In this document: in pieces, positions 40,101 through 57,253 of the stretch
Numbering within the stretch: the first letter of the stretch is position 1
Layout of the letters: every line of letters begins with the position of its first letter
DNA from: Acidobacteriota bacterium
GTDB taxonomy: Bacteria; Acidobacteriota; Terriglobia; UBA7540
Direction of reading: 5' to 3'
Length of the DNA stretch: 64,000 nt
Assembly: GCA_004298155.1 (NCBI GenBank)
Contig: SCRD01000008.1
Coordinates: 124,001 to 188,000 of the forward strand
Notes under the pieces: model-generated
Told to the model about the DNA's origin: nothing
Database searches by the model: none
Seen by the model: the letters and a program-made list of their open reading frames with translations, nothing else
Program-made: the position numbers and the translations under genes

Positions 40101-40348
40101 AGTTATCGAAGAAGCCAAGCATCGGGGCGTTGCCCCTCATCCCACGGCCAAGCCAGACAGCGTCAGGAAAATTCAAAGCTTGGCCGCGGGTTGAGAGGTT
40201 CCCGGCACACGTGATCCTCTGTGGCCCCGTCCTCGACGGGATTCAGCGGCGTGGCCCTGAGAGAGGTTGTCTTTCAATTCGGAATGTTAAGTTGCCGGTT
40301 TTGTGCGTATGAATAGGTACGGCCACGATGGAAGATGGCTGGTTGTTG

Positions 40349-41041: not shown

Positions 41042-41048
41042 GGAAACC

Positions 41049-42083
41049 TCAATTCAAGACCGCGACTCGGCCATCTCTGAAGACGATGCGAAGCTCGTGC
41101 GAAAAGCGTTCCTTTTCTCGGATCGTCGTCACACCCGCATCGTCGGTTTCTTCAACCGTGTCCGTCACTTTCACGCTTTGCCACCGTGCGATATGAAGTG
41201 TCGGCCCTTCGCCGAAAATTCCGTTGAGCAGGCCCGATACTGCGAGCAGCCCCACGTGCCCTCCGTGGAGCGGAGTGAGCGGGCGGCCGGCGACGTGGTC
41301 CTCCTTCCCAATCAGAAGGCGGCTTGCTTGACGGTAGGCTGGAGATTTCGCCAGCAAATCCTCGACCTCATCGAGCGGCAGGCCGCGATCGGCCAGCGTG
41401 ATCGGTTCGGCTGCAGGTACGGGGTAGATGCGGGAGGGACGATCAGTGAGAGGATGGAGTTGACGAAACTCATCAAGTGCCCGTGATTTCCGGTAATAGT
41501 CCATTCGCTGGCGGCTGACATCATCATCGCGGACACGCTCACGTTCACTCCGCGTTCGCCGAATACCAAAAAGGACCACCTGGCTGTACTTTACACACTC
41601 GGGCTCAGTAAGCGCATAAACGCACGTGTCTTTGAAGTTCCAAGCAAGAATTTCGCTGCAATCAGCAAGGCTGGCGCACGGAATGACAAGAACCAGGATC
41701 CCGCCCGGCTTAAGCCAGCGGCAGGTGTGCCGGAGGAAAACGCGCTCCATGCGCTCGTTCTTGTCTTCGGAGATTTCGAAGTCGTAGGGAGGATTCAGAT
41801 AGAGAAGCGAAATGGATTCGGCCGAGCAATGGACGTCGAAGGCGCTGGCATGGATGACCTGTTCAGCGCGCGCAGCTGCCTGCTCGGCTCGGTAGGCATC
41901 GAGTTCGATGCCGCAGCTGTGGCCCTCGACGCCAGCGGTAATTGCAGCGAGGGCGTGGCCCTCGCCGGCACAAGGATCAAGCGCCACGAACCCGGGCGTC
42001 AGTTGAAGATGCTGCCGGATGCGTTCAGCTTCCGGCAATGGAAGCGGGAAGTACCCGAGACGGACACGGCCTTCGATTCGCAA
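41049..42083 (-). CDS. N6-adenine-type DNA methyltransferase-like protein (DUF6094-like)
   Basis: TTG 42083 is preferred because AAAGGAG lies about nine bases upstream; it gives MRIEGRVRLGYFPLPLPEAE. The 344-residue product has an AdoMet fold: ALDPCAGEGHAL (motif I), then LLYLNPPYDFE (motif IV, NPPY, the catalytic motif of amino-methylases) and WLKPGGILVLVIP. Family knowledge: DUF6094 proteins occur in ICEs and phages and look like DNA methyltransferases. Methylation of adenine is inferred from NPPY; target sequence unknown. It heads the operon containing the helicase. Confidence 0.8.
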   Translation of the reverse strand: MRIEGRVRLGYFPLPLPEAERIRQHLQLTPGFVALDPCAGEGHALAAITAGVEGHSCGIELDAYRAEQAAARAEQVIHASAFDVHCSAESISLLYLNPPYDFEISEDKNERMERVFLRHTCRWLKPGGILVLVIPCASLADCSEILAWNFKDTCVYALTEPECVKYSQVVLFGIRRTRSERERVRDDDVSRQRMDYYRKSRALDEFRQLHPLTDRPSRIYPVPAAEPITLADRGLPLDEVEDLLAKSPAYRQASRLLIGKEDHVAGRPLTPLHGGHVGLLAVSGLLNGIFGEGPTLHIARWQSVKVTDTVEETDDAGVTTIREKERFSHELRIVFRDGRVAVLN

Positions 42084-42199
42084 AGGGGGCCACTCCTTTC
42101 CGCGTTTCTCTTGATATTTTTGGAGCTGCGATATCCTAATGAAAAGACAAGTGTTGGCAGCCGTTTGACGGGTTCGAGCCAAGGCATTAACCTGACGCC

Positions 42200-43708
42200 A
42201 TGTCCCAGTTTGTGAACAACGGTCAGACCTGCTACGGCAGGGTTTCGGAACTCAGAACCTCCGCCCGGCGCGTAGATTGCATCCTCGGAGAGGGACATTC
42301 TTTGCTCCTGTCCAGGGTCCCGGGCGGTTTGGTCTTTCGTGGGGACACAATTGAGTTTCCGCTGCCAAGTGAAGGCTGCGACATCGGAACCGAAATCCTG
42401 GTTCGCAGAGGCCCGAACTCCAGACGGAAGGATCTCTATCAGGCGCCCATCGGCTACTTTGTGAGACCGAAAGAGGACAGGCGGGGCCAGTTTTACTCAC
42501 TCGCAGAGGTTCGTCGTGGTTCAATCGGAATCTCGGCCGTGCGGCTGAATTGCGATATCATTCGCGACTACTTTTATGTCGCCGCATTCTCAAGTCGTGC
42601 TAAGGAGCAGCCCGACTTCTATGAGGTCCTCAAGACAACCCCGACTGCGTCGCAGGCTGAGCTGCGGCTTGCTTACAAGATTCGTGACCTGGAATTAAGG
42701 GCTGCTGGCGCCAGCCTACGGGAACTCAAGGTGACCGAGCGCGCCTTCAACATCCTGGCCGAGCCGGAATTGCGGGCCTGTTACGATAGGCTCCTGAAAG
42801 ATCCCAACACGCCGGCGCTCTTTCCTTATGGTGGACTTGGCTCGCTCATAGTTGAGGGCGAGCGCTCTCGTGATGGAAAGACCTTCTTTGCCCGCCGCAT
42901 TCTTGCTTTTTCCCCAGACAGGCGCGAGCAAAGATTCACGGTACCCCTCCGAAACTTCTGCTTTTATGCGGATCGCGCGATTTACCGTGACGCGAGACGG
43001 ACGTTGGAAATCATCGTGGACCAAGCGGCGATGCCGCTCCTTTGGGACGCCACCTGGAATCAATGGAAACATTTGCTCGATGCCACAGCTGAGGTTCGAG
43101 CGACGTTTCTCCAGACCGGCGTTTACCGCATAAAGGATGGAGAATGGACTCCTGTAACTTGGGAGAAGTCTCTGCCTAGCCGGATCAAGGTAACGCTGCC
43201 GCCTGATATTAACGAGCGAATCGAGGCTGCGCGTCGCCGGCATCACATTTTCGGACTACATGCCGACTTCTTCGCCCGCCTGCGTGTCCGCATCGAGCGG
43301 GAGCCGATCGCGAAATCGGAGATTGAGCGATTGTGCGACGATGCAGGAATTCCTGGTGACTTCGACGTGGCGCAGATTACGTGGGAAGCTGACTACAGTG
43401 CCTTTTATTACCGGGAGCTATTGAAGCGCACCAGAACCGTGTACTTCTTCCGAGATGAGTTCATCTTTGAGCTTGAGCGAGTGATCGCGATTGAAAGACC
43501 GGAATTGGGCCATGCCACCTATCTGTTCGCGAGACCTTCAAACATGGATGACTTCCTCCGACTATATGCCAGTACCACCAAGCAAGCTATTCGTGCCAAC
43601 CAGGACAACATAGCCGAGCAAGTCAGATTCGTGGGCCGCATCAATCACGGGGTAAAGCCTGAAACATGGTTGGAGGCCCTGAGAGTTTTCCTGGGAGGGG
43701 CAGTCTAA
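42200..43708 (+). CDS. Large protein with degenerate J-like domain
   Basis: A 502-residue protein divergent from the methyltransferase operon. Residues ~138-200 (DFYEVLKTTPTASQAELRLA, then YKIRDLELRAAG and FNILAEPELRACYDRLL) match a DnaJ domain, but the HPD tripeptide needed to stimulate DnaK is absent. The preceding ~130 residues look beta-rich (YFVRPKEDRRGQFYSL); the C-terminal 300 residues are unassigned. Without HPD the domain is likely a binding platform. It may belong to the replication or transfer machinery of the element; no direct evidence. Confidence 0.6.
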   Translation: MSQFVNNGQTCYGRVSELRTSARRVDCILGEGHSLLLSRVPGGLVFRGDTIEFPLPSEGCDIGTEILVRRGPNSRRKDLYQAPIGYFVRPKEDRRGQFYSLAEVRRGSIGISAVRLNCDIIRDYFYVAAFSSRAKEQPDFYEVLKTTPTASQAELRLAYKIRDLELRAAGASLRELKVTERAFNILAEPELRACYDRLLKDPNTPALFPYGGLGSLIVEGERSRDGKTFFARRILAFSPDRREQRFTVPLRNFCFYADRAIYRDARRTLEIIVDQAAMPLLWDATWNQWKHLLDATAEVRATFLQTGVYRIKDGEWTPVTWEKSLPSRIKVTLPPDINERIEAARRRHHIFGLHADFFARLRVRIEREPIAKSEIERLCDDAGIPGDFDVAQITWEADYSAFYYRELLKRTRTVYFFRDEFIFELERVIAIERPELGHATYLFARPSNMDDFLRLYASTTKQAIRANQDNIAEQVRFVGRINHGVKPETWLEALRVFLGGAV

Positions 43709-44092: not shown

Positions 44093-44194
44093 CCGCTTTC
44101 GTGATTGTCGCCGACGTACAAGCGTACCGCTTATGAGACAATGCAACTTCGAGCATGTCGCGGTCATTTTTCGCCCTGGGGAGGGGAAGTCTTC

Positions 44195-44373: not shown

Positions 44374-44505
44374 TAGCCGCACGGTCAGGCGTACCGTTGG
44401 AATCGGCGGATTGGAGCCACCATGGCGAGTGAACGCGCAGACACGACTACGTGGCGAAACCCACAATACGCCGCCCGTGTGGAATAGTTACATGCAGGAG
44501 GCGCC

Positions 44506-45455: not shown

Positions 45456-45560
45456 CACCGGCGTTGCGCCGTCGCTGCCTCGACTGAGCTGCTCGACGCT
45501 TTGAAGGTCAACCGGGGACACATGGTCGTGCTGCCTGCTGTTAATGAGCCGGCGTTTTGG

Positions 45561-46382
45561 TTAAGCCTCTCGGGACTGCAAACTCAGTGTGGCCTGTCTT
45601 CTCATTCGCTTCCAGCACGCCGGGTCAATCCTGAGAACTGAGGTTGCCCCGGTTGCCAGATTGATGAAGCAGCCGTGATAGCTGATTTCGCCGTAGCGAA
45701 ACAGCCTCGCCAACAACGCAAGCGCGTGCTGCGCTAGGGTCGAATTAATGAATGCACCTTGCCTCTCCAGGGCAGCAACAGCGCTGCAACTTGGCTCGGT
45801 GTCGTCATCAAAGGCCGGATCGCAAATCTCAGGGAATAATTCGAAGGACGCGCGCAGGCGCAGCCTCGATCTGCGATTGCGCTCATTTAGGGGCTCACCC
45901 AGGACAAACTGGCCAGTGTCCGAGCTGTTTCCTAAATCCAGCATGTAGCTCGTTGCACTCCAGTTACTCACCGCATCCCGAATCGCGGCTCTCGCAGCTC
46001 TCGTGTCAACGCACCCGATCACAATGTGCGCGCGGAGGTCGTCGCCGGAATAACTCCGTGAAATGTAGGCGCCGGGTTTCAAGTGAGCCGGGAGCGCTTC
46101 CCAATTCAGTCCCCAGAAGAGGTTTAGGCGGTTGACCAGAACGACCGCTTTGTTATGGCCGATCTCCGATCGCGCGAACGCTTGGCGAACACAGTTGAAG
46201 GGCGAGATTGCATCGCCGTCCATCACGGTGACGTGCAAACCACCGGGGTGGCCCCAAGCCACGAGAGACTGATGAAGATAAGGCAGCCCGGCGGCGACGG
46301 CGCTTCCTGTCCCGCCGCAACCTACGACCAGCACACGCACCTGGCGTTCGAGCAATTCCGGATGGACGCGGTGGATTCCCAT
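45561..46382 (-). CDS. PRTRC system ThiF-family (E1-like) protein
   Basis: ATG 46382 has GAGGAAAT upstream and follows the PRTRC B gene, overlapping its end by ATG-proximal bases only slightly short of coupling. The 273-residue product has the E1 Rossmann motif VLVVGCGGTGSAVAAGL, then VTVMDGDAISPFNCVRQAFA and VIGCVDTRAARAAI. These are the nucleotide-binding and acceptor-docking motifs of ThiF/MoeB/E1 enzymes, which adenylate the C-terminus of a ubiquitin-like protein. No CxxC zinc pairs are evident. It is last in the cassette E-C-x-F-B-ThiF. Expected partners are PRTRC C (Ubl) and B (E2-like). Confidence 0.9.
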   Translation of the reverse strand: MGIHRVHPELLERQVRVLVVGCGGTGSAVAAGLPYLHQSLVAWGHPGGLHVTVMDGDAISPFNCVRQAFARSEIGHNKAVVLVNRLNLFWGLNWEALPAHLKPGAYISRSYSGDDLRAHIVIGCVDTRAARAAIRDAVSNWSATSYMLDLGNSSDTGQFVLGEPLNERNRRSRLRLRASFELFPEICDPAFDDDTEPSCSAVAALERQGAFINSTLAQHALALLARLFRYGEISYHGCFINLATGATSVLRIDPACWKRMRRQATLSLQSREA

Positions 46383-46392
46383 GGCGATTTCC

Positions 46393-47106
46393 TCAGCGGT
46401 CTGCTCCGCGGGCAACGAATTCCTCGAGCGTCTCGCCAGCGTCGGTCAGATACCGAACTGCGAATCTCTTCCTGTTAGCAAGACTTCTCCACAGGCCGAT
46501 GAAACCTCCTGGGTGATTGGTGAGCCGAACTGCTCCGACTGCGTGGGTGAAATTGGACTGAAAATAAGCAGCCTGCCACTGTGGAATCGAGGAAACATCG
46601 GAGCTTTCGGGCACGCGCATTGTGCCGGGACAAACCAAGCCTCGGTTGTCCGTGTTCCAATACGGCGCGGTCTTAAGCGGCGAGTTTCCTGCTGGCCGCG
46701 ATGTCGTTGCAAGCGCTCTTACGGAAAGATCTCTGCCAGCGACCTTGAAGACAAGCGCCGGGTGCGGTAAGACAAGACCATTGAGCTTCCGCGCTTGTTC
46801 GTCGGTTCCACCAAAGAACATGACCCGGCACTGCGGCCTTGACCACCAAACCAGCAAGTCCGGTGTCCGCGCGAGAATATTGTCGGGAAGAATCTCGGGT
46901 TTGACGCGGGCGCCCAGGCCTTCGGCAAGAGTGCGCACGAACGCAGTGTTTAGCAGTTCTCCGGCGGCGAGATACGGAGCGCCGTCCTGACTTTGTTCCA
47001 CTTTGTGCAGGCTAGCAAAAGCTCCGTCTCCCCCGGTCCGATAAACGAGCACAGCTTCGCGAAGCTTGAATTCACGGTTAGCGCCGATGTCAATGTAGGC
47101 TTTCAT
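46393..47106 (-). CDS. PRTRC system protein B (E2-like)
   Basis: ATG 47106 is preferred over an upstream frame start at 47124, which overlaps protein F. The 237-residue product begins MKAYIDIGANREFKLREAVL, then VYRTG, and includes PDNILARTPDLLVWWSRPQC followed by RVMFFGG, RKLNGLVLPHPALVFKVAGR and FTHAVGAVRLTNHPGGFIGL. This conserved order identifies PRTRC B, classed by comparative genomics as a divergent ubiquitin-conjugating (Prok-E2_D) domain. C108 in SRPQCRVMFF is a candidate catalytic residue, inferred only. It lies 4 bp after protein F and 10 bp before ThiF. Confidence 0.88.
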   Translation of the reverse strand: MKAYIDIGANREFKLREAVLVYRTGGDGAFASLHKVEQSQDGAPYLAAGELLNTAFVRTLAEGLGARVKPEILPDNILARTPDLLVWWSRPQCRVMFFGGTDEQARKLNGLVLPHPALVFKVAGRDLSVRALATTSRPAGNSPLKTAPYWNTDNRGLVCPGTMRVPESSDVSSIPQWQAAYFQSNFTHAVGAVRLTNHPGGFIGLWRSLANRKRFAVRYLTDAGETLEEFVARGADR

Positions 47107-47110
47107 CTTT

Positions 47111-48085
47111 TCACCCTGAAACAACCCACTTGTCGTTGCCCGGCATCAGGTCCATAAGCCGGCTCGCCGTCGCAAGCGTTTCGCAAGCGACACCGAATGA
47201 ATCAAACGCCTGCCTTGCGCCTTCCCGGTCACCCGGATCAAACGGGATGATCAGATTCGGCTCGGGCGTGACCTCCATCATTCCTTCGGACTCCTCATCG
47301 AATGCTGCCGCAATTCTGTCCGCTTCTGCGAAGATCGACAGAAGAGCGGGCAAAGGCGGGTTGCAGTCCGAAAGCAGTTCGCCGACAACGTCATCAAGCT
47401 GCGGTCGCTCCGCTTTGCGAGACACCTGGTCGAGCCTAAGAACTGTTTCGACCAACTTTGCCGCAAGCGGATTGGCGAACTTCCCCTTCAGACGGAGGAG
47501 TTCGCGGTGCTTCAGCGGCACCTGCTTCATGCACCGCGGAATCGAGCCCTGGACATCAGGCAATTCGTATTGGTTAGCCTCCGGCTCGTTCGCAATCCAA
47601 TCGAGCAAATTCTCCCTACGTTCTTCGGCGTCACGATAATCGTAGACCCTAGTCCAGCGATTCAGAGCGGCGACAAATAGATGGAAGAACGTTGCCGGCA
47701 GTTTGGGATGGTTTCCCTCGAGCAGTTGCAATGTGGGACCGAACATCACGCAGCCGGCCTCCGTTGGCTCGACCGTCAAGAAGAGCCTTTGCGGGTGGGC
47801 TTGATCTTCCTCGCCCCAAGCGGAAGGAGAAGAGCTGATTCTTGCTTCCAAAATGAAACGGCGCCGAATCGCCTCGCCACCATGTGCCTCGATCCACCGC
47901 TCAAGCGTCAGGCCAATAAACGAGGAGGGATCATGTTCCGCTCGATGCCAGTCTTCGAGGACTGCAATGTCCATTTCGACAAGAGATTTGGCCAGCATCA
48001 CAGCCAAGGTGTCGTCTGCAACCAAACGATGAACCAGCGGGACGCCATCGAGTCGCGGGAGCACCAATCCGCTGCCTTGCGCCAT
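47111..48085 (-). CDS. PRTRC system protein F
   Basis: ATG 48085 overlaps the stop of the preceding small gene (TGATG), which decides the start; the longer upstream frame is rejected. The 324-residue product begins MAQGSGLVLPRLDGVPLVHR and has DIAVLEDWHRAEHDPSSFIG, then CMKQVPLKHRELLRLKGKF and LAAKLVETVLRLDQVSR. This is the PRTRC F pattern. The protein is mostly helical, without catalytic motifs I can name. Its role in the PRTRC set is unknown. Confidence 0.85.
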   Translation of the reverse strand: MAQGSGLVLPRLDGVPLVHRLVADDTLAVMLAKSLVEMDIAVLEDWHRAEHDPSSFIGLTLERWIEAHGGEAIRRRFILEARISSSPSAWGEEDQAHPQRLFLTVEPTEAGCVMFGPTLQLLEGNHPKLPATFFHLFVAALNRWTRVYDYRDAEERRENLLDWIANEPEANQYELPDVQGSIPRCMKQVPLKHRELLRLKGKFANPLAAKLVETVLRLDQVSRKAERPQLDDVVGELLSDCNPPLPALLSIFAEADRIAAAFDEESEGMMEVTPEPNLIIPFDPGDREGARQAFDSFGVACETLATASRLMDLMPGNDKWVVSG

Positions 48086-48318
48086 CAACTGACCGGCGGA
48101 AGCCAGCCGGCCGGTGCATCGAGCGGCGTGCGGTTGTAAGCGCGCGCGCTCGCGTCCAGCGCGGCTGCGAGGAGTGCGGCGGCGCGTATCAATTCGGGGC
48201 ATCTGGCAAACCTCCCGACCAGTGTTTGGTAACGGGCATGGCGGCCCTGGCGAAGGTTTTCAAGCTCCGCTAGAACCGCCTGCTTCGTTGCCTCCCTCCG
48301 TTTGGAATTTTGGTTCAT
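48085..48318 (-). CDS. Small helical protein inside the PRTRC cassette
   Basis: ATG 48318 lies 4 bp after the PRTRC C stop; the stop overlaps the F start. The 77-residue product starts MNQNSKRREATKQAVLAELE and continues with GRFARCPELIRAAALLAAAL. It is basic and helical with one cysteine. Coupling on both sides shows it is a genuine cassette member, though I have no family name for it. Confidence 0.65.
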   Translation of the reverse strand: MNQNSKRREATKQAVLAELENLRQGRHARYQTLVGRFARCPELIRAAALLAAALDASARAYNRTPLDAPAGWLPPVS

Positions 48319-48322
48319 CGGG

Positions 48323-48526
48323 TCACCCCTTTGAACCAATGGCGCGAGAGAACCTGTACACCAGCTTGTCCCCGACAACTTCCGGCCCGGTGATCGTCGC
48401 GGTCGCAATGTCGGGATATTGCTGTGAATACAGCGTCCGAACTTCCTCTGCTGAGAGCTTCGGGTCCGGATCGGGAAGCTTCAAAGATTGGAAACTGAAA
48501 CTGCGGCCAAGTACTCGGCTTTCCAT
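48323..48526 (-). CDS. PRTRC system protein C (ubiquitin-like)
   Basis: ATG 48526 overlaps the protein E stop (TGATG). The 67-residue product reads MESRVLGRSFSFQSLKLPDP, then VRTLYSQQYPDIATATITGP and DKLVYRFSRAIGSKG. It matches PRTRC C, a beta-grasp (Prok_Ub) protein proposed to be the modifier of this system. The C-terminus ends in Lys-Gly rather than Gly-Gly, which bears on whether and how it is adenylated by the ThiF protein. Very short, cytoplasmic. Confidence 0.88.
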   Translation of the reverse strand: MESRVLGRSFSFQSLKLPDPDPKLSAEEVRTLYSQQYPDIATATITGPEVVGDKLVYRFSRAIGSKG

Positions 48527-49026
48527 CAGAGTGCGAGACCTCCCTTCGGTTGAGTTGAAGCTGGCTCGCACGACGCCGTTCCGAATAGCCCCGGCGCTGC
48601 AGCGGATGCCGAAGCCGGCGCGGTGTCGGAAGGCGTTGCGGGTGCGGCGGATGCAGTTGAGCTAGGCTCAGCGGACGTCGCGTTGCTTCCTTTATCGAGC
48701 GGCTTGTGAGTTGCTTTCTTGCGCTCTTCGGCTTTCCGCTTCGCTTCCTCCTGCGCGGCCTTGGCGGCAGCCTCCATCGTGGCTTTCGCTTCGGCCAGAG
48801 TGCTGGCGGTTTGCTGGTGGGTTTGGACGTAACCGGCCAAATGCTTCCCGAGTTCGGCATCAAGTTCCTCGGGCGAGCCGGTGTACGTGAGTGGGGTGGT
48901 GAGAGCCGGATTCTCGTCGGCCTTTCCGTGGGGAATGACGTTGACGCGGAGCGTCCTGTCATCCACCTTGGCCACCGTGATGAGCACGGTGCAGCCGGCA
49001 AGAAGCGGCATGAGTTCGACGAACAT
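48526..49026 (-). CDS. PRTRC system protein E
   Basis: First gene of the cassette, ATG 49026, with a perfect AAGGAGG upstream. The 166-residue product begins MFVELMPLLAGCTVLITVAK and has the conserved DRTLRVNVIPHGKADENPAL, then TTPLTYTGSPEELDAEL. From about residue 80 it becomes a Lys/Glu/Ala helix and then a Ser/Thr/Ala/Pro-rich disordered tail. This is PRTRC E. Its function is unknown; a scaffold for the conjugation enzymes is conceivable. Confidence 0.85.
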   Translation of the reverse strand: MFVELMPLLAGCTVLITVAKVDDRTLRVNVIPHGKADENPALTTPLTYTGSPEELDAELGKHLAGYVQTHQQTASTLAEAKATMEAAAKAAQEEAKRKAEERKKATHKPLDKGSNATSAEPSSTASAAPATPSDTAPASASAAAPGLFGTASCEPASTQPKGGLAL

Positions 49027-49161
49027 TACGTGTCCTCCTTATTTTGAAATAGGGCAATTTCGTTGCCGACCACGGTCGGGCCACATTCTGAACCTTGCAC
49101 ACGCAGGATGGGAGAGGGCTCACCCGGTATTGCAATAGGCGACCGAAACCGAGCCAAGGTT

Positions 49162-49202
49162 TTGCCCCCCTCGCCCTTCTTGTGGTATGCTAATCAGCGG
49201 AT
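49162..49202 (+). promoter_or_regulatory. Promoter of the XRE gene with shared box
   Basis: TTGCCC (49162-49167), 18-bp spacer, then TATGCTAATCAGCGGAT (49186-49202), ten bases before the XRE start codon. The 17-base box recurs, with one difference, ahead of the ubiquitin-like gene at 50271. GCTAATCAGC inside the box is a small dyad. Confidence 0.6.
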
Positions 49203-49211
49203 ATACGGATC

Positions 49212-49523
49212 ATGACATTCGGACAAATCGTCGCTCAAGCTCGAAAGAAGTTGGGTATCAGCCAAAAGGAGCTTGCCAATCGCATTAAAAAGGAAGACGG
49301 AGAATCGATATCACCGCAATACCTGAATGATATAGAGCGAGATCGCAGGAACCCTCCGTCGGAATATCTCATTAGCCAGTTCGCAAAGGAGTTGAAGCTC
49401 TCCAAGCACTACCTCCTTCTCGCAGCAGGCACATTGCCTCAAGAAGACAAGGAAAAATTAAGTGATTCGAACCCCGATGATGTCGAACAGGCATATCGGG
49501 CTTTTCGCAGGCAAATTAAGTGA
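49212..49523 (+). CDS. XRE-family helix-turn-helix regulator
   Basis: A 103-residue protein: FGQIVAQARKKLGISQKELA, then GESISPQYLNDIERDRRNPP and FAKELKLSKHYLLLAAGTLP. This is a Cro/cI-type HTH over residues ~3-65 with a short tail. It is followed 6 bp later by an ImmA/IrrE metallopeptidase. In ICEBs1-type switches the protease cleaves the XRE repressor. The box in its own promoter is shared with the Ubl operon, so it probably represses both. Confidence 0.88.
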   Translation: MTFGQIVAQARKKLGISQKELANRIKKEDGESISPQYLNDIERDRRNPPSEYLISQFAKELKLSKHYLLLAAGTLPQEDKEKLSDSNPDDVEQAYRAFRRQIK

Positions 49524-49529
49524 AGACCG

Positions 49530-50243
49530 ATGAAGTGGGTTAAAGATCAAACCGGGCGCTTCTCAGTGCGGCCTCACTATCTTCCCGAGGAACTCGACTC
49601 CGAATGTGAGAAGCTCATAACTGATTTTCTCCTTCAACGACATCGAAAGGTCGAGTACCCGGTCAGAACCGACGACGTCACTGTGCTCATTGAGACCTTG
49701 ACAGATGACCTTGATTTATATGCCGATCTGTCACAAGAGGATGGCGACGTCGAAGGAGTCACAGACTTCTTCCCAGGGCACCGACCGAAAGTAAAAATCT
49801 CTAGAGAGTTGGCACTCGATCCGCGCATGAGCAATCGCCTTCGGACCACGCTCACTCACGAACTTGGACACGTTAAGTTTCATGCGTTCATGTACGAAAG
49901 TGAGACATCAGGCAACTTGTTTAGTAGTGCGGGCGCTGTCATCTCCAATAAATGCAAGCGGGACAACATGTTAGGGTCGCTCAAGGCGGACTGGATGGAA
50001 TGGCAGGCGGGATTCTCATGCGGAGCTTTCCTGATGCCGGTGACGGCGTTGCGCGCAACGGTTAGGCAGTTCCTTGAAGAGCATGAAATTTCCGTGGGAC
50101 AATTCGAGGCAAGGACTTCGGAGGCCGGGAGGCTAATTTCCACGGTTTCTAATGCCTACGCGGTCTCGCGGGAGGCTGCCCGTGTCCGCTTGCTGCAACA
50201 AGGCACGCTCTCCGAAACAGCGTTGCCAGCCGCTCTTTTTTGA
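49530..50243 (+). CDS. ImmA/IrrE-family metallopeptidase
   Basis: A 237-residue protein with the zinc-protease motif TLTHELGHVKFHAFM (HELGH, residues ~111-115) and a C-terminal helical region containing KADWMEWQAGFSCGAFLMPV, the conserved WxxxxAxxxAxxLLMP-like block of ImmA/IrrE. Relatives cleave a partner HTH repressor on DNA damage or infection. It lies directly behind the XRE gene and just ahead of the ubiquitin-like operon, so it is the likely trigger that turns the operon on. The inducing signal is unknown. Confidence 0.88.
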   Translation: MKWVKDQTGRFSVRPHYLPEELDSECEKLITDFLLQRHRKVEYPVRTDDVTVLIETLTDDLDLYADLSQEDGDVEGVTDFFPGHRPKVKISRELALDPRMSNRLRTTLTHELGHVKFHAFMYESETSGNLFSSAGAVISNKCKRDNMLGSLKADWMEWQAGFSCGAFLMPVTALRATVRQFLEEHEISVGQFEARTSEAGRLISTVSNAYAVSREAARVRLLQQGTLSETALPAALF

Positions 50244-50246
50244 CAG

Positions 50247-50287
50247 TTGCAAAATTTTTTCGATGTGCGATATGCTAATAAGCGGAT
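50247..50287 (+). promoter_or_regulatory. Promoter of the Ubl operon with the same box
   Basis: TTGCAA (50247-50252), 18-bp spacer, then TATGCTAATAAGCGGAT (50271-50287). Both the box and the -35/-10 spacing match the XRE promoter; the start codon is 37 bp downstream with a leader carrying AGGGAG. Confidence 0.62.
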
Positions 50288-50324
50288 CGGCAGAATAGCA
50301 GCGTTGATCGAAAGGGAGACAAAA

Positions 50325-50582
50325 ATGGCTACACAGATTAACCATCCCACGGACCCCGCGACGGGTCCCGACGTGACTATCACGATCAACAATACAGGCT
50401 ACACGGTGCACCGTGGAAGTATGACGGTCAGCGAGATCAAGGAGCTCGCCAGAATTCCCGCGGCGTACGAACTTGAGGAAATTGTCGATGGAAAATTGGT
50501 CCCGCTCAAAGACGACCAGCACGTGGTTATTAAGGGCGGTGAAATATTCGTCAGTCACCCTCGGTCCGGGTCGGCATCCTAA
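50325..50582 (+). CDS. Ubiquitin-like modifier (multiubiquitin-domain family)
   Basis: ATG 50325 with AAGGGAG upstream. The 85-residue product contains a single beta-grasp unit: VTITINNTGYTVHRGSMTVS, EIKELARIPAAYELEEIVDG, KLVPLKDDQHVVIKGGEIFV and SHP. This is the Multi_ubiq (PF14452) signature; relatives often carry two or three copies, here one. The tail after the fold is RSGSAS, with no terminal Gly-Gly, so it may need trimming by the JAB peptidase coded two genes later, or work without it. First gene of a five-gene operon with E2, JAB, E1 and a kinase. Confidence 0.85.
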   Translation: MATQINHPTDPATGPDVTITINNTGYTVHRGSMTVSEIKELARIPAAYELEEIVDGKLVPLKDDQHVVIKGGEIFVSHPRSGSAS

Positions 50583-50917
50583 TGGTCGATCAAAGGCACC
50601 TCCAAGAGATACGATCTCTGTGCCCGGGGCTTAAACAACTCACGGAAGGCGGGGTTGATTACGTCCTGCTTCCAGCACTTAGGCTGCCCGATGGGTGCAC
50701 TCCTTGCGTTGTGGATTGCCTGCTCGTCTTAGGGTCGCGAGACGGATACGACACCCGCTTGTACTTCTCGCAGGTGGTCACGAGTCCACAGGGCCGAAAC
50801 TGGAACAGCCAAAACATTCGCATACTAGAACGCAATTGGTTCGCATATTCTTGGCGCATCCCGACGGGGCTCCGGCCAATCGAGACTCTGCTCGCACACT
50901 TGCAAGCACTCAGATGA
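50582..50917 (+). CDS. E2-like ubiquitin-conjugating protein (Prok-E2_E type)
   Basis: A 111-residue protein whose ATG overlaps the Ubl stop. The family blocks are visible: CTPCVVDCLLVLGSRDGYDT, RLYFS, then RNWNSQNIRILERNWFAYSW and RIPTGLRPIETLLAHLQALR. The E2 fold in this family carries a conserved Trp/Asn region instead of the HPN of eukaryotic E2s. Cysteines are at 14, 39, 42 and 46, any of which could be the carrier; I cannot pick one. Tight coupling with the Ubl and JAB genes supports its role. Confidence 0.83.
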   Translation: MVDQRHLQEIRSLCPGLKQLTEGGVDYVLLPALRLPDGCTPCVVDCLLVLGSRDGYDTRLYFSQVVTSPQGRNWNSQNIRILERNWFAYSWRIPTGLRPIETLLAHLQALR

Positions 50918-51420
50918 ACATCACGCTTCGCATCCCCGGCTACCTTCTAGACATGATCCTGACGGATCTCCGTCGACGGCACGAATTTGCACGTGAGCGC
51001 GTCGGCTTTGTGTGTTGCAAACAGGCCCCGGTCCCTTCTGGCCACCTGCTCCTCGCCTACAAGTACACGCCCATCAGGGATAAGCAGTATATCGAGAACC
51101 AGACTGTTGGTGCGGAATTCGACGCTTCGGCAATTCGCGAGGCGATGCAACTTGCACTCGATGAAGACGCAGCGGTGTTACATGTCCACCTCCACGATCA
51201 CCCTGGAAGGCCAAGCATGAGCAAAACCGATAACCGTGAAATACAAGCCTTGATGCCGTGCTTCGTGAGCCTCTGTCCAAAGCGGGTACATGGAGCGTTG
51301 GTACTCAGCGCCGACCGTGCCACAGCAAAGGTATGGGGAACGCATTTGCCCCCCGATGGTACTTCGATGACGAAGATCACCAGCGTCGGGGCGCGGATCC
51401 GTTTCCTTGGAGGAGTATGA
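50914..51420 (+). CDS. JAB/MPN-domain peptidase (Ubl processing or removal)
   Basis: Start ATG 50914 overlaps the E2 stop (ATGA), deciding against a longer upstream frame. The 168-residue product has the JAMM zinc motif HVHLHDHPGRPSMSKTD (H94-x-H96, S103, D106) with the expected upstream Glu in ERVGF (E28). JAB proteases cut isopeptide or peptide bonds after ubiquitin-like proteins. Here it may mature the Ubl tail and reverse conjugation. Other parts: VGAEFDASAIREAMQLALDE. All catalytic ligands appear intact. Confidence 0.85.
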   Translation: MNITLRIPGYLLDMILTDLRRRHEFARERVGFVCCKQAPVPSGHLLLAYKYTPIRDKQYIENQTVGAEFDASAIREAMQLALDEDAAVLHVHLHDHPGRPSMSKTDNREIQALMPCFVSLCPKRVHGALVLSADRATAKVWGTHLPPDGTSMTKITSVGARIRFLGGV

Positions 51421-52208
51421 CCGAGCGCTACTCGAGGCAGACATTTCTTGGGGCGAATGCAATGGAATTCCTGCGAGAAGCCGACGTGGCCATTATCGGC
51501 GTCGGCGGTGGCGGTTCGCATGTCGCTCAGCAACTCGCACACATTGGCGTAGGGCATGTACAGCTCTACGATCCCGATCGGGTCGACGAGAGCAACCTGA
51601 ATCGCCTCGTCGGCGCCGTTGCCGCGGATGCAACGACTCGCGAGCTAAAAGTGAGAGTCGCGGAACGGATGATCCGGGGCATCAATCCTGAGGTGAACAC
51701 ACAGGTCTTTCCCTCAAAATGGCAACTGGCCGCGCCTAGGCTCAGGGAATCAGATGTAATCGTCAGCTGCGTGGATTCGTTCGCGGCACGTCAAGACATC
51801 GAAGTAACGGCCCGTCGATTCCTAATTCCCCTAATCGACATCGGCATGGATGTGCACCTTGTTGACAATAAGCCGCAAATCGCTGGCCAAGTCATCCTCT
51901 CCCTCCCCGGTGGACCGTGCATGAAATGCCTCGGATTTCTCAATGACGAGGCGTTACGCCAAGAGGCAGACCAGTATGGGGCCGCGGGTGATCGTCCTCA
52001 GGTGATCTGGACCAATGGCGTTCTCGCCTCGGTTGCTGTCGGCATACTGGCAGATCTTGTGACTGGATGGAGAGACCAGCGGCTCTGCGGCGAATACATC
52101 CACTACGACGGCAACACCCACGAATTATCAAACAGTCCTAGACTTCAGTACGCTCCAGCCAAGTGCATCCATTTTCCCTTGGAGGATATCGGAGAACCAC
52201 GGCTGTAA
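51417..52208 (+). CDS. E1-like (ThiF) activating enzyme of the Ubl operon
   Basis: Start ATG 51417 overlaps the JAB stop (ATGA) and has GGAGG upstream. The 263-residue product has Rossmann motif VAIIGVGGGGSHVAQQLA (residues 24-41), YDPDRVDESNLNRLVGA and VSCVDSFAARQDIE, all core E1 features. PCMKCLG (C168, C171) could be half of a zinc site or contain the catalytic Cys. It should adenylate the Ubl and pass it to the E2. It is clearly different from the ThiF protein of the PRTRC cassette 5 kb to the left. Confidence 0.88.
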   Translation: MTERYSRQTFLGANAMEFLREADVAIIGVGGGGSHVAQQLAHIGVGHVQLYDPDRVDESNLNRLVGAVAADATTRELKVRVAERMIRGINPEVNTQVFPSKWQLAAPRLRESDVIVSCVDSFAARQDIEVTARRFLIPLIDIGMDVHLVDNKPQIAGQVILSLPGGPCMKCLGFLNDEALRQEADQYGAAGDRPQVIWTNGVLASVAVGILADLVTGWRDQRLCGEYIHYDGNTHELSNSPRLQYAPAKCIHFPLEDIGEPRL

Positions 52209-52226
52209 GGAAGGACGCCAATAACC

Positions 52227-53078
52227 ATGGAACTGAGCCAGGTTGAGCCGAGCGTAATTGCCAACAATTGCCCAGGTTTAGTCATCGGAACACAGCTTAA
52301 AATCGGGGGACAGAAACGAGTCTGGCAATGCGCGTACCAAAAGGAGGCTTACGTACTGAAAGCATTGATGGGGGATGAGCGCACGCTACGCCGGGTTCGT
52401 CGCGAGATTGAAGTGATGCATGTTTGCGAATCACGTTACTTACCCAAGTTCGGCCCATTGCCCCTGCAGGAGCTGCGGCTTGCTAACGGACAAACACTTC
52501 TTTACTTTTTGGAGGAATATATCGAGGGTACCCCGCTCAACTCAGTCCACATGCCGATGCCGACAGAGGATGTAGTTGCGCTCGCACTCTGCGTGGCCGA
52601 GGCCCTCGATGTGCTTGCCCTAAATGGGTACGTTCATCGCGACGTCAAGCCCATGAATATCATTCAAAGGCGCTCATCCGACTACGTGCTGATTGACGCA
52701 GGGATAGCGCTTGACCTCGACGGAGAAGCAATCAGCGTTTCCGGTGCTGTGGTCGGTACGAAGTGGTACCTTTCCCCCGACCAACTAACTCTCCCGCCAA
52801 AAGAACTGGACCTTCGGTCCGACCTATTCTCGCTTGGTGTCACACTATATGAGAGTGCGACGGGAGAACATCCTTTTATGAATGACGAAGTGCCACGTGG
52901 CGATATTGTTCTCAACATTCTGCATTTCGAGTGTCTTGACCCGCAGCGGTTCAACCCCGCAATGCCTCGCCCACTCTGTGACGTCATCTCAAGACTTTTG
53001 TGCAAAGATCGCAATGGGCGCTATTCCACCGTAGAGGAGCTGCGGGACGCGCTCAAGGCCGTGCGCTTGCCGGTGTAA
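52227..53078 (+). CDS. Ser/Thr protein kinase ending the Ubl operon
   Basis: A 283-residue single-domain kinase that starts 18 bp after the E1 gene. Motifs: Lys in AYVLKALMGD (K45), catalytic loop YVHRDVKPMNII (HRD 137-139, N144), DAG (157-159) in place of DFG, and activation segment VVGTKWYLSPDQ in place of APE. F-helix DLFSLGVTLYESATGEHPF is present. The glycine-rich loop (LKIGGQK) is short. Active-site Asp and Lys are retained, so it is probably active. No membrane segment or sensor domain. A kinase as fifth gene of such an operon is not a layout I know. Confidence 0.88.
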   Translation: MELSQVEPSVIANNCPGLVIGTQLKIGGQKRVWQCAYQKEAYVLKALMGDERTLRRVRREIEVMHVCESRYLPKFGPLPLQELRLANGQTLLYFLEEYIEGTPLNSVHMPMPTEDVVALALCVAEALDVLALNGYVHRDVKPMNIIQRRSSDYVLIDAGIALDLDGEAISVSGAVVGTKWYLSPDQLTLPPKELDLRSDLFSLGVTLYESATGEHPFMNDEVPRGDIVLNILHFECLDPQRFNPAMPRPLCDVISRLLCKDRNGRYSTVEELRDALKAVRLPV

Positions 53079-53285
53079 AAACATCCTGGCAAGTATAAAC
53101 GATGGCACGCAGTCATTCATTTCCTTGGGCTCAAGGACACCTCGAAGCGCGAAACTGCCATCCACGGCTCGTAGGGCCAGGGTTTGCTCCCAGCCAATGC
53201 CGATACAAACGTCGGTCCCACGGCACCATTTTCAGGGCAGGAAAAGAGAACAACGAGAGAAGTGAACGTTGGCACGAGCCACAAG

Positions 53286-53735
53286 CTAAAATGGAATATC
53301 AGAGTCCTTGATCTCGCTCTCCGGGTCGTTGAACGGGTTATCGCTTTCGTCGGCAGGCTCTGTGACCTTCGGTGATTCAGCCGACTTTGTGCCGTTTCCA
53401 TTCTTTGCTGGCCCGAGGAACCTGATCGTGTTGACGACCACTTCAGTGACGTCGTGCTTCTCGCCTTGGCGGTCTTCATAGGTCCGAAACTGAAGCCTTC
53501 CTTCGACGAACAGGTATTTGCCCTTAGTGACATGCTCGCCGACAATCTCCGCCACGCGCCGCCATGCGACACAGCGGATCCAGAGCGTATTGGATTTCTT
53601 CTCACCCTGGGCGTTCTTGAAGGTTTCGTTCACCGCCATTGAGAAATTGGCCACGGGCGTGCCGCCGGCAGTAAATTTCATTTCGCTGTCGCCGCCCGCG
53701 TATCCGATCAACATCACTTTGTTTAACATGGGCAT
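53286..53735 (-). CDS. ssb: Single-stranded DNA-binding protein
   Basis: ATG 53735 (or 53729) gives MPMLNKVMLIGYAGGDSEMK, an OB-fold start, then TPVANFSMAVNETFKNAQGE, WIRCVAWRRVAEIVGEHVTK and KYLFVEGRLQFRTYEDRQGE. The acidic C-terminal tip DSDIPF is present, the docking site for replication and repair partners. About 149 residues. It binds ssDNA as a tetramer. As a second ssb on accessory DNA it fits the plasmid/ICE maintenance set with dnaN and SbcCD. Confidence 0.93.
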   Translation of the reverse strand: MPMLNKVMLIGYAGGDSEMKFTAGGTPVANFSMAVNETFKNAQGEKKSNTLWIRCVAWRRVAEIVGEHVTKGKYLFVEGRLQFRTYEDRQGEKHDVTEVVVNTIRFLGPAKNGNGTKSAESPKVTEPADESDNPFNDPESEIKDSDIPF

Positions 53736-53821
53736 CTGAATGTGCGCGCAGGCCGGCAATTGCCAGCCTGGACGCCAGAACCTCCTTCTTTGTGTATAAA
53801 TCCTTTCGAGGGGCGCAACGT

Positions 53822-55114
53822 TTATTGGAGGGTGATCCGAATTGTTTCTCCAAATGGCGCAGTTCTCCTGGACTCTGTTACCCAGAGCACTGGGTAATCC
53901 GGCGTCTCTGGAAACGAATCACAACAGAGATCGGTGAGATAGATCAGGCAGGCAGGGGCGACCTCCTTTTCGACGACCCAGTCGAATGCCGGGCGGAAAT
54001 CGGTACCGCCACCGCCTTTGGGTTCGAGCTTGACTGGCTCTGATGCTCGGAACTCTTGAATCGATTGAACCGCCGCGTCGCAATACGCCACGTGGATAGC
54101 TTCCGGCTGCACCTCCTCAGAAATAGCGGAGATTTCAGCGGCAAATTGTTCGAGCTCCCGTTTTCCAATCGACCCGGAGGTGTCAACCACGACCACAATC
54201 TCGCCCAGGGCACGCCGCTCAACCGAGGGTAAATAGAGCCCCGAAGCGATATAACGCCGATTGGGCGGCGTCCAGCGATAATCAGAGGGCGCCGCGGCGG
54301 CAATAAAATCGCGTAGGATAGCTCGCCAGTCCTGCTTCGATTCGCGGCTTTCAGATAGCGGCCTCTGAACTCCTCCCGGCTCATGCCCGCACGCCTTGGC
54401 CGACCGGAGAGCTTGCTCCGCAGCGATGTTCCATTCGTGCCCCTGGCGACGCTTCTCGGCCGGCGAAGCGGGATGGCCTTGATCATCGGTTGCGTCCCAG
54501 ACTTCGCCGAATCCGCCGGCGCGCATTGAAGCCGGATCGGGGGTTCTATCCCTTGTCTCGGGAGTTCGGTTTTCCGCTGGCTGACAAGCGGAGGGAGCGC
54601 TCGATTCCTGGGTTCTGGGACCTTGCGCAGCCTGCGGGCCGGTACTCGTCATCCCGCCACCGGTCGCTTGCCCGCCCGATTGCGCGGGCGCGGTGCTCCC
54701 TTCGCTTCTTTTCTGTAGCAACCGGGCGTAGATTTCCTCTGCGCTCAAGTTCGTGAAAGCGGGATCTATGAGCGCTCCGGCAGGGAGAGTAAGGCCGTTC
54801 TTGATCAGAATCGGGTTGATGGCCAAATCGGCGGCTTCATTCCAGAGTCTTGGCTCCCGGTTGCCACGCCGACAATGATGGCCCAACGCGCAGTGCAAGA
54901 CTTCGTGGGCAAGCGTTCCTTCGAGTTCGGTCGGTTTGAGTTGATCTACGAATCCAGGGTTATAGACAATCCGAGTGCCGTCAGTTGCCATCGTGGGCAG
55001 GCTTCCGGGAGTGAGTTTCAGTCTCAAACTCAACGTTCCGAAAAAAGGCTGGTCCAAGACAAGCCTCGTGCGCGCACGTGTGAGCCTTTCTTCCGTCGTC
55101 TGCCTAAATTTCAC
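53822..55114 (-). CDS. VWA-like metallopeptidase-domain protein (DUF2201 type)
   Basis: A 430-residue protein. Residues ~1-135 hold a zinc-peptidase-like domain with LEGTLAHEVLHCALGHHCRR (HExxHxxxxH). A Ser/Pro/Thr-rich linker (about 135-235) leads to a C-terminal VWA-like domain: ALGEIVVVVDTSGSIGKREL (DTSGS MIDAS), and later ACLIYLTDLCCDSFP. This pair of domains is a regular partner of MoxR AAA+ ATPases. The MoxR gene is 3.7 kb upstream on the same strand. Its start overlaps the next gene's stop (ATGA). Role: probably chaperone/assembly, by analogy. Confidence 0.88.
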   Translation of the reverse strand: MKFRQTTEERLTRARTRLVLDQPFFGTLSLRLKLTPGSLPTMATDGTRIVYNPGFVDQLKPTELEGTLAHEVLHCALGHHCRRGNREPRLWNEAADLAINPILIKNGLTLPAGALIDPAFTNLSAEEIYARLLQKRSEGSTAPAQSGGQATGGGMTSTGPQAAQGPRTQESSAPSACQPAENRTPETRDRTPDPASMRAGGFGEVWDATDDQGHPASPAEKRRQGHEWNIAAEQALRSAKACGHEPGGVQRPLSESRESKQDWRAILRDFIAAAAPSDYRWTPPNRRYIASGLYLPSVERRALGEIVVVVDTSGSIGKRELEQFAAEISAISEEVQPEAIHVAYCDAAVQSIQEFRASEPVKLEPKGGGGTDFRPAFDWVVEKEVAPACLIYLTDLCCDSFPETPDYPVLWVTESRRTAPFGETIRITLQ

Positions 55115-56037
55115 GCCACCCTCCCCTCAATAGGAGCAGGGACCGAGTAGCCAGCAAGAAATGGAGCCATCTTTGCCGCAATCGCTGACGCAGCCTTGGC
55201 GGTTTCGCTGCGAACCAACTCCGACTCCCGCAGTTCTTTCGGATCAACAAGCAGGGATGCCCTCACTTGCGCGGCCAGTCTTTCCAGTTCCGGGTCCCCG
55301 GTGACATTCAGCTTGGGCAGTACATCAACCAGTTTCACCAGATTGGTGACGACGGAATCGCGGAATGGGTGCTCGACTCCATCCTCCGTGACCTTGTAAG
55401 CGTGAAGTCGTTCGGCCAGGTGGCTCACTGCTTCGTACAGCCGCTGCCACAATTCCCGGCTTGCAACCTGAAGGGACGCCTCGACGGCCGCGGTGATCTG
55501 GCGCTTGATCCGGTCCTTCTCCTCCTCGCCCAATGTGACCCGGAAATCGCCTGCATCGGGCAGAGGCATCACCTTGGTGTCAAAGGAGAATTTCGAGCGC
55601 AGCTCCTCGGGCGACGGATAATCCTCCGGACGGAATAGCCCGCCAAGTCGGACTTTGGCTTCTTCCACAAGCTGACCGAATTGCTGCACAAGGGTCTCAA
55701 CGGCCGGAGAGAACCGGTTGGAAAGATCCCGCATTCGTTCGGTGTGGTCCATGTAGGCCGCTGCCGGGAGGACTCGATAGCCGTTATCGTCCCAGGGCAA
55801 GGTCATGAAGTAATGCTCCTGGCGGGCATCGCTGACGATTCTCTGGATCTCGGCGAGCACCGCTTTGGGGAGAAGCACTTTGTGGTAACGCCCAGCGTCA
55901 GACTGCGCGCCATGCCGCTGGGCAATTTCCTCGGAGGCTTCGGGGTCGTGTTTCCGAGCCGACCACATGCTGATCGAGAGCGAACACAGCATGGCCCGTG
56001 AAGACAAAGAAGGTTCTGGAACAGTGATAGAGTTCAT
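55111..56037 (-). CDS. DUF3150-like protein of the MoxR/VWA set
   Basis: A 308-residue helical protein coupled to the VWA gene. It reads LCSLSISMWSARKHDPEASE, RYHKVLLPKAVLAEIQRIVS and HYFMTLPWDDNGYRVLPAAA, the W(S)xRKxD and TLPWxDxGxR pattern that I associate with DUF3150. Residues 100-290 are predicted helices rich in Glu and Arg. Such proteins sit between MoxR and VWA genes in phages and integrative elements. Function unknown; the family call is from memory and tentative. Confidence 0.6.
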   Translation of the reverse strand: MNSITVPEPSLSSRAMLCSLSISMWSARKHDPEASEEIAQRHGAQSDAGRYHKVLLPKAVLAEIQRIVSDARQEHYFMTLPWDDNGYRVLPAAAYMDHTERMRDLSNRFSPAVETLVQQFGQLVEEAKVRLGGLFRPEDYPSPEELRSKFSFDTKVMPLPDAGDFRVTLGEEEKDRIKRQITAAVEASLQVASRELWQRLYEAVSHLAERLHAYKVTEDGVEHPFRDSVVTNLVKLVDVLPKLNVTGDPELERLAAQVRASLLVDPKELRESELVRSETAKAASAIAAKMAPFLAGYSVPAPIEGRVA

Positions 56038-57230: not shown

Positions 57231-57253
57231 AAGCACCCCAAGAGTCGAATCAC

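What the first reader, a model, noticed from the sequence alone, without database searches (positions are those of the whole stretch)
45561..53078. Two divergent ubiquitin-like conjugation cassettes side by side, with a regulator/protease pair between them
Leftward: PRTRC E, C (Ubl-like), small protein, F, B (E2-like), ThiF (E1-like). Rightward: Ubl, E2, JAB, E1, kinase. Each has its own modifier, E1 and E2; only the right one has a JAB. The pairing could allow cross-talk (one JAB serving both Ubls) or division of labour between maintenance (PRTRC) and defence (Ubl operon).
Basis: partly seen in the sequence, partly recalled or inferred. Interest (0 to 1): 0.85.

Follow-up and report, generated by a model that had tools for sequence, protein, structure and literature searches.

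The report
Two ubiquitin-like cassettes, one locus
An unnamed bacterium carries two different bacterial ubiquitin-like tagging systems back to back in what looks like a mobile-element region: a stripped-down PRTRC core and, beside it as cargo, a Bub operon (a known, putative immune system); the neighbourhood recurs in this genome and, with a related system, in two others, but nothing points to shared parts.

Summary
Leftward: PRTRC E, C (Ubl), a small protein, F-like, B (E2), ThiF (E1). Rightward: HTH, M78 peptidase, Ubl, E2-like, JAB, E1, kinase. The right cassette is a Bub (bacterial ubiquitination-like) operon: its E1 profile and its E2-like and JAB models match solved Citrobacter BubCD/BubB best. 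The HTH+M78 pair goes with Bub (CapH/CapP-like), not with both. The left cassette is a PRTRC-derived core without A, D or a ParB above cut-off; A is PRTRC's own JAB and is above cut-off in 0 of 299 class genomes. The chemistries differ: PRTRC B and ThiF keep invariant cysteines and PRTRC C ends at ...KG; Bub E1 and E2-like proteins have no conserved catalytic cysteine and the Ubl has a GxSS-type tail. Cross-talk is therefore unlikely. The genome holds a second PRTRC+Bub pair whose Bub comes from the opposite deep clade, and two other class genomes have Bil within about 15 kb of PRTRC. Best reading: PRTRC-bearing elements carry defence cargo, in which ubiquitin-like cassettes recur. Against a conserved pair: 0 of 59 other Bub loci show PRTRC genes in their fetched flanks.

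The parts
45561..46415 (-). PRTRC ThiF (E1-like), left cassette
   Evidence: TIGR03736 267 bits; Cys210 in 27 of 27 aligned rows, one locus entered twice
46393..47124 (-). PRTRC B (E2-like, Prok-E2_D), left cassette
   Evidence: TIGR03737 167 bits, Prok-E2_D 111 bits; Cys165 and His194 in 21 of 21
47111..48202 (-). PRTRC F-like protein (true start probably nearer 48091)
   Evidence: TIGR03742 28 bits, below cut-off 58.4; homologues in the same place in class loci
48085..48318 (-). small protein between PRTRC F and C
   Evidence: homologues in the same place in several class loci
48323..48571 (-). PRTRC C (Ubl, Prok_Ub), ends ...RAIGSKG
   Evidence: TIGR03738 76 bits, Prok_Ub 81 bits; terminus shared
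48526..49026 (-). PRTRC E
   Evidence: TIGR03741 70 bits
49186..49202 (+). candidate operator copy 1 (TATGCTAATCAGCGGAT), just before the HTH gene
   Evidence: only 2 matches with up to 3 mismatches in 64 kb, chance mean 0.26, 3 of 100 shuffles reach 2; pattern chosen after reading the sequence
49212..49523 (+). HTH repressor, CapH-like (weak)
   Evidence: HTH_3 39 bits; PADLOC HTH_VI 35 bits, capH 18 bits
49530..50243 (+). M78 (ImmA/IrrE-type) metallopeptidase, CapP-like
   Evidence: Peptidase_M78 24.7 bits; PADLOC capP 24 bits, 6e-6
50271..50287 (+). candidate operator copy 2 (TATGCTAATAAGCGGAT), before the Ubl gene
50325..50582 (+). Ubl (BubA-like, single Multi_ubiq-type domain, tail ...SGSAS)
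   Evidence: Multi_ubiq 24.3 bits; C-terminal pattern shared by relatives
50582..50917 (+). E2-like protein (BubB-like), no conserved cysteine
   Evidence: AlphaFold pLDDT 95.1, best PDB fold match 9eae_C BubB; Y56, W86, S90, L107 invariant
50914..51420 (+). JAB/JAMM peptidase
   Evidence: E28, H92, H94, S103, D106 invariant, H90 98%; fold hits BubCD 7e-9, then BRCC36 and Rpn11 types
51417..52208 (+). E1 (ThiF-type adenylating enzyme) of the Bub cassette
   Evidence: ThiF 127 bits; profile hits BubCD 1e-24
52227..53078 (+). Ser/Thr kinase, PD-T4-6-like, 18 bases after the E1
   Evidence: Pkinase 90 bits, PD-T4-6 129 bits; homologue after the E1 in G142 (L119, 62%)
53286..53759 (-). SSB-like protein, far edge of the cargo slot (named by eye)
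   Evidence: homologue at the far side of the same slot in G042 (L112)
53822..56037 (-). DUF2201 VWA/metallopeptidase gene and a gene with a weak DUF3150 match (19.9 bits, cut-off 24.9)
37734..43708 (.). neighbours also next to the second PRTRC locus: helicase, 230-aa protein, DUF6094 methyltransferase, 502-aa protein

Best explanation
Two independent ubiquitin-like systems lie side by side because one is part of the backbone of a mobile-element-like region and the other is defence-type cargo in a slot of that backbone. Left: a PRTRC-derived core (Iyer type 6d) with a Ubl that ends at its glycine, an E1 and an E2 with invariant cysteines, and no JAB of its own; its task is unknown, and maintenance or transfer of the element is the inferred one. 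Right: a Bub operon. Inferred working: a CapH-like HTH protein represses its own gene and the Ubl operon through a 17-base site found before both; DNA damage or phage attack makes single-stranded DNA, which activates the CapP-like M78 peptidase to cut the repressor; the JAB trims the Ubl behind the conserved glycine; the E1 adenylates it; with the cysteine-less BubB-like protein it is joined to targets; the JAB also removes it; the PD-T4-6-like kinase is an added effector or regulator. Shown here: gene content, families, predicted folds, conserved residues, the repeated site, the second locus. Inferred: every biochemical step, the defence role and the mobility.
For: Bub identity: E1 profile to BubCD 1e-24, JAB profile to BubCD 3e-4, E2-like model to BubB, JAB model to BubCD. 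Regulator goes with Bub: M78 within 6 kb upstream of the E1 in 16 of 41 loci with full flank against 0 of 41 downstream; a 2026 paper reports 219 of 544 Bub operons with CapW or CapH+CapP (passages of PMC13373217). Cargo slot: the nearest PRTRC relative found (G042, ThiF 87%) has PIN, an 839-aa protein and a DNA methylase gene between PRTRC E and SSB instead of Bub; complete BilABCD lies between PRTRC E and C in G235, and QatABCD between F and B in G221. Independent gains: the two Bub E1s of this genome fall on opposite sides of the deepest split of the midpoint-drawn tree, 100/94. Different conserved residues. VirB8 and TraG-type coupling-protein matches downstream on the same contig.
Against: Some cargo is not defence: slots in other genomes hold, by eye, xanthine-dehydrogenase-like and alcohol-dehydrogenase-like genes and a family-B DNA polymerase. 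The 17-base repeat has only two copies, was picked after reading the sequence, no similar repeat was seen at the second locus, and no sigma-70-type promoter was found. The window's HTH and M78 match capH and capP only weakly (18 and 24 bits). Copy 1 of the repeat lies in the shared 185-base gap, so an effect on PRTRC E is not excluded. Element ends were not found. Bub has not been shown to protect against phage (PMC13373217). The BubB fold match has E 3e-3 and none passes 0.001.
Confidence: 0.74

Rival explanations
1. Cross-talk: the right-hand JAB serves both modifiers and replaces the lost PRTRC A.
For: PRTRC A, the JAB of canonical PRTRC, is missing here and above cut-off in the whole class sample, and a Bub or Bil JAB lies in the neighbourhood in G000, G235 and G202. 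In the A-bearing Rhodoferax plasmid, PRTRC C carries 71 residues after its KG that would need cutting, so JAB and tail could go together.
Against: 18 of 23 class genomes with a PRTRC ThiF match have neither Bub nor Bil at the limits. PRTRC C of the window already ends at KG. The A and Bub JAB profiles hardly align (hhalign probability 0.7%; one profile has only 2 sequences, so this is weak). Aromatoleum has A although its PRTRC C ends at KG.
Confidence: 0.07
2. Shared switch: one regulator (HTH/M78) controls both cassettes through the divergent gap, so PRTRC and Bub are induced together by DNA damage.
For: The gap between PRTRC E and HTH is only 185 bases and holds one copy of the 17-base repeat. 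An HTH gene with a capP-like M78 also sits directly before PRTRC B in G221 (L120, 55 bits).
Against: The second copy lies before the Ubl, and copy 1 is about 160 bases from PRTRC E, next to the HTH start. At the second locus the HTH/M78 pair lies beyond the Ubl operon, about 7 kb from PRTRC E. M78 goes with Bub in loci without PRTRC.
Confidence: 0.13
3. Chance neighbours with no element-level link.
For: 0 of 59 other Bub loci show PRTRC components in their fetched flanks (27 of 59 have 9 kb or more on both sides). Of 48 other Bub genomes and 2 plasmids, 4 have a PRTRC ThiF match, one on a contig of the same length as the Bub contig, about 39 kb away.
Against: Within the class sample PRTRC and Bub/Bil share 5 genomes against 1.15 expected (P 0.003), and 4 of the 6 cassettes in those genomes lie within 20 kb of PRTRC against 0.07 expected by uniform placement. 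The 20 kb limit was set after seeing the places, two of the four lie in one genome, and defence islands are not uniform.
Confidence: 0.06

Closest known systems
Bub (bacterial ubiquitination-like) operon; Iyer 2006 operon type 6e
   Same: Multi_ubiq-type Ubl, cysteine-less E2-like protein, JAB and E1 next to each other, CapH/CapP-type regulator upstream; fold and profile matches to Citrobacter BubCD/BubB; type 6e as described in the paper (section read).
   Different: JAB and E1 are separate genes (one chain in Citrobacter BubCD); the Ubl has a single domain; a PD-T4-6-like kinase gene follows the E1, seen otherwise in the closest relative G142 and, more distantly, in 1 of 59 loci (46 of them with 3 kb downstream).
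PRTRC system; Iyer 2006 operon type 6d
   Same: E, C, F-like, B and ThiF in the order seen on PRTRC plasmids; B and ThiF keep invariant Cys; C ends in glycine.
   Different: No A (JAB), no D, no ParB above cut-off; F below cut-off; an extra small protein between C and F.
Bil (BilABCD)
   Same: Ubl, E2, JAB, E1; found in or near a PRTRC locus in two class genomes.
   Different: No match in this genome; BilB has a catalytic Cys and BilD a Cys domain (passages of PMC11354881), which the window's Bub proteins lack.

Membership tests
Bub operon | E1 of the Bub type | tested here: met
   family profile hits BubCD best, 1e-24; next MoeB/ThiF 1e-17
Bub operon | E2-like BubB fold without canonical catalytic Cys | tested here: met
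   best fold hit BubB, TM 0.70, probability 1.00, E 3e-3; no conserved Cys in 66 rows, 8 with none at all
Bub operon | JAB peptidase with JAMM residues | tested here: met
Bub operon | Ubl of the Multi_ubiq type | tested here: inconclusive
   24.3 bits against cut-off 24.5; tail pattern G-x-[SA]-[SA] in 56 of 58 rows including the window
Bub operon | protein conjugation activity, phage defence | not testable with these tools
   needs biochemistry; defence not shown for Bub in general
PRTRC system | C, E, B and ThiF proteins above curated cut-offs | tested here: met
PRTRC system | protein F | tested here: inconclusive
   28 bits, cut-off 58.4
PRTRC system | protein A (DUF2016+JAB) | tested here: not met
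   no match in the own genome, 0 of 299 class genomes above cut-off; no tblastn hit of two plasmid A proteins
PRTRC system | ParB and D proteins | tested here: not met
   ParB best 156 bits, cut-off 278.6, none on the window's contig; D no match. Filed as a PRTRC-derived core, not as a complete PRTRC system.
CapH/CapP regulator | HTH gene followed by M78 peptidase next to an immune-type operon | tested here: met
   capP 6e-6 and capH 9e-4, both weak; the pair at the second locus scores 115 and 32 bits
CapH/CapP regulator | repressor cleavage on single-stranded DNA | not testable with these tools
   needs experiment

The most novel reading that the evidence does not exclude
PRTRC-bearing elements of this bacterial class are a preferred vehicle for ubiquitin-like immune cassettes: Bub (two clades) and Bil repeatedly enter slots of a JAB-less PRTRC backbone, which may give the element a working advantage, for example a shared pool of targets or a JAB in trans.
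Probability: 0.25. Interest if true: 0.7.

Novelty: new variant of a known kind. Interest (0 to 1): 0.5.

Why it matters
Both cassettes are known kinds, but the locus is a natural side-by-side of two bacterial ubiquitin-like chemistries, one with cysteine relay residues and one without. It allows a clean test of specificity between such systems, adds a kinase-bearing Bub variant, and points to PRTRC loci as places to look for defence systems, since complete Bil and Qat sets were found inside PRTRC gene sets.

Tried and rejected
Rejected: a shared JAB as the main reading (see rivals). Rejected: one PRTRC+Bub block that was duplicated; the two Bub E1s are 47% identical and lie in opposite deep clades, while the PRTRC ThiFs are 64% identical. 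Rejected: the kinase as a regular Bub part. Rejected: CapK as the kinase; CapK is an HTH-STAS-GHKL kinase encoded upstream (PMC13373217), this is a Pkinase-family protein downstream. Led nowhere: Rfam search of 44000-55000 (0 matches); repeat search in the regulator gap of the second locus (one 9-base pair only); promoter and terminator scan (0 found); PDB sequence search for PRTRC ThiF and B (0 matches); paper search for PRTRC with ubiquitin (1 unrelated paper); listing of the 26 papers with PRTRC (none read); search for BubCD (1 unrelated paper). The two Bub papers named in the reference list of PMC13373217 (Gong 2025, Ye 2026) and Lau 2022 are not held; I saw only their references and claim nothing from their content. 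That Bub and CapH/CapP exist was a recalled lead, then tested.

Rows dropped before counts: L135 (identical to L040), but it was still among the rows; L042 (Ubl fused to E2) in the tail count; 13 JAB rows (long ORFs, mostly JAB-E1 fusions) and 5 E1 rows of odd length, the same 5 E1 rows; copies under 200 residues, where L138 appears twice for ThiF. Two further rows printed (L125, L130 with the Rhodoferax query) are read-throughs of the same genes and were not counted. The Rhodoferax row is the one PRTRC C copy of 19 that does not end in KG.
Full report
What is there. The six leftward genes are a PRTRC set: E, C, a small protein, F-like, B and ThiF. C, E, B and ThiF exceed their curated NCBIfam cut-offs; F does not. 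The rightward genes are HTH, M78, Ubl, an E2-like protein, JAB, E1 and a kinase; stop and start codons overlap from Ubl to E1, and 18 bases separate E1 and kinase. The window lies at C8:124001-188000 of a 5.2 Mb genome in 29 contigs.

The right-hand cassette is a Bub operon. A search for the E1 in species genomes gave 59 loci in organisms of many phyla. In 69 loci (these, the two own loci, 3 plasmids and class genomes; one duplicate removed) 59 have all four components within 3 kb. The E1 family profile hits Citrobacter BubCD at 1e-24, ahead of MoeB and ThiF at 1e-17; the JAB profile hits it at 3e-4. The E2-like model (pLDDT 95.1) has BubB as best PDB match (TM 0.70, probability 1.00, E 3e-3; no match passes 0.001, and the next has probability 0.10). 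The JAB model (pLDDT 94.7) hits BubCD first, then BRCC36 and Rpn11-type proteins. This agrees with operon type 6e of Iyer 2006: a Ubl of one to three domains, a cysteine-less RWD-like E2, a JAB and an E1 (section 14 of PMC1779556 read).

The left-hand cassette is a PRTRC-derived core, Iyer type 6d. Canonical PRTRC also has protein A. I took A from the Rhodoferax and Aromatoleum plasmids and it is DUF2016 plus Prok-JAB, so canonical PRTRC owns a JAB. DUF2016 is above cut-off in 0 of 299 class genomes; two have weaker matches, one of them (G164) a PRTRC genome. The two plasmid A proteins have no tblastn hit (E up to 1e-3) in the window, the second locus or the 22 other PRTRC stretches fetched, several of which are short. 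PRTRC D has no match in the genome and ParB is below cut-off.

The conserved residues differ. PRTRC B keeps Cys165 and His194 in 21 of 21 copies, and ThiF keeps Cys210 in 27 of 27 rows. Of 19 PRTRC C copies, 18 end in KG; the Rhodoferax one carries 71 residues beyond it. The Bub E2-like proteins have no conserved cysteine (at most 39 of 66) and 8 of 66 have none; Y56, W86, S90 and L107 are invariant. In 65 Bub E1s the invariant cysteines are C168, C171 and C250, with H252, a zinc-site pattern by my reading; C112 is in 58 of 65 but is serine in the window. Bub Ubls have G-x-[SA]-[SA] within the last eight residues in 56 of 58. In 55 separate JABs E28, H92, H94, S103 and D106 are invariant and H90 is in 98%.

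The regulator pair goes with Bub. M78 lies within 6 kb upstream of the E1 in 16 of 41 loci with full flank and in 0 of 41 downstream. PADLOC names the window's M78 capP (6e-6) and its HTH capH only weakly (9e-4; HTH_VI scores higher); the pair at the second locus scores 115 and 32 bits. [quoted passage not shown] A 17-base sequence occurs twice in the window, before the HTH gene and before the Ubl gene; 3 of 100 shuffles give two matches at up to three mismatches, but I chose the pattern after reading the sequence, and no counterpart was seen at the second locus.

Is the pairing more than local? The same genome has a second PRTRC locus (C24), with its own HTH, M78 and Ubl-E2-JAB-E1 upstream of PRTRC E. 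Neighbours (helicase, methyltransferase, 502-aa protein) are shared, but the two Bub E1s are 47% identical and separate at the deepest split of a 64-row tree (27 and 37 rows, support 100/94; midpoint root). In G042, the closest relative of the window's PRTRC found, the same slot holds other genes. Of 299 class genomes, 23 have a PRTRC ThiF match (E up to 1e-10, several short), 8 Bub E1, 8 BilD (two at only 77 bits) and 6 QatA. PRTRC and Bub/Bil share 5 genomes, of 23 and 15 (expected 1.15, P 0.003). In those 5 genomes 4 of 6 cassettes lie within 20 kb of PRTRC (two here, G235, G202; expected 0.07 by uniform placement); within 10 kb it is 3 of 6. The limit was chosen after the fact, two cases share a genome, and islands are not uniform, so this shows clustering, not mechanism. 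Qat, which is not ubiquitin-like, also sits inside one PRTRC set (1 of 6 Qat loci), so the cargo is not Ubl-specific.

Against the pairing. 0 of 59 other Bub loci show PRTRC components in their fetched flanks, of which 27 reach 9 kb on both sides. Among 48 of their genomes and 2 plasmids (50 of the 62 loci I had), 4 have a PRTRC ThiF match, one of them only about 104 bits; one lies on a contig of the same length as the Bub contig, about 39 kb away. In the family sample 6 of 39 genomes have PRTRC and 2 of 39 Bub.

Setting. On the same contig, just beyond the window, lie a VirB8 match and a TraG/TrwB-type coupling-protein match (L006), which suggests a conjugative element, but ends were not found. 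The window also holds AbiE and TIR-type genes. The reading is therefore: element backbone with a PRTRC core, defence-type cargo in slots, two independent ubiquitin-like systems. In the library searched, PRTRC and ubiquitin share one unrelated paper and PRTRC does not occur in PMC13373217, so I found no report of the pairing; most subscription papers are not in that library.

Noticed in passing
window 52227-53078; L119 10483-11433: A PD-T4-6-like Ser/Thr kinase follows the Bub E1 in this window and in G142; in G142 no Ubl was found and the E2-like gene shows only as a fragment in frame with an unrelated long ORF.
   Followed up: partly
L126 8186-10983 (G235): A complete BilABCD, with an M78 gene beside it, lies between PRTRC E and PRTRC C.
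   Followed up: yes
L137 6959-11987 (G221): A complete QatABCD lies between PRTRC F and PRTRC B.
   Followed up: yes
L172 6851-8571 with L125 (G202): BilD and a BilC-like gene lie about 15 kb from PRTRC ThiF, with DUF2201-, DUF3150- and MoxR-like genes of the window's kind in between.
   Followed up: partly
L070 4993-5418: Rhodoferax PRTRC C has 71 residues after its conserved KG; the class copies stop there and a separate small protein follows. A fusion that JAB A must cut is possible.
   Followed up: partly
L135 and L173 (G176, 57% complete): One genome of the window's family has both Bub and Bil, on different contigs, with no PRTRC match.
   Followed up: no
window 30307-35901: Tn7-like transposition genes: TniQ, an AAA/TniB-type ATPase, and a protein with TnsA-like and Mu-type transposase matches.
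   Followed up: partly
window 26983-28768: AbiEi/AbiEii toxin-antitoxin pair, 308 and 404 bits.
   Followed up: partly
window 57227-57760: TIR-domain protein near the two cassettes, weak ThsB similarity.
   Followed up: no
window 61063-62172; L141 12994-14148: A DnaN sliding clamp lies near each of the two PRTRC loci (78% identical).
   Followed up: no
L120 11466-12868 (G221): An HTH gene and a capP-like M78 (55 bits) sit directly before PRTRC B, with no Bub operon in the stretch.
   Followed up: no
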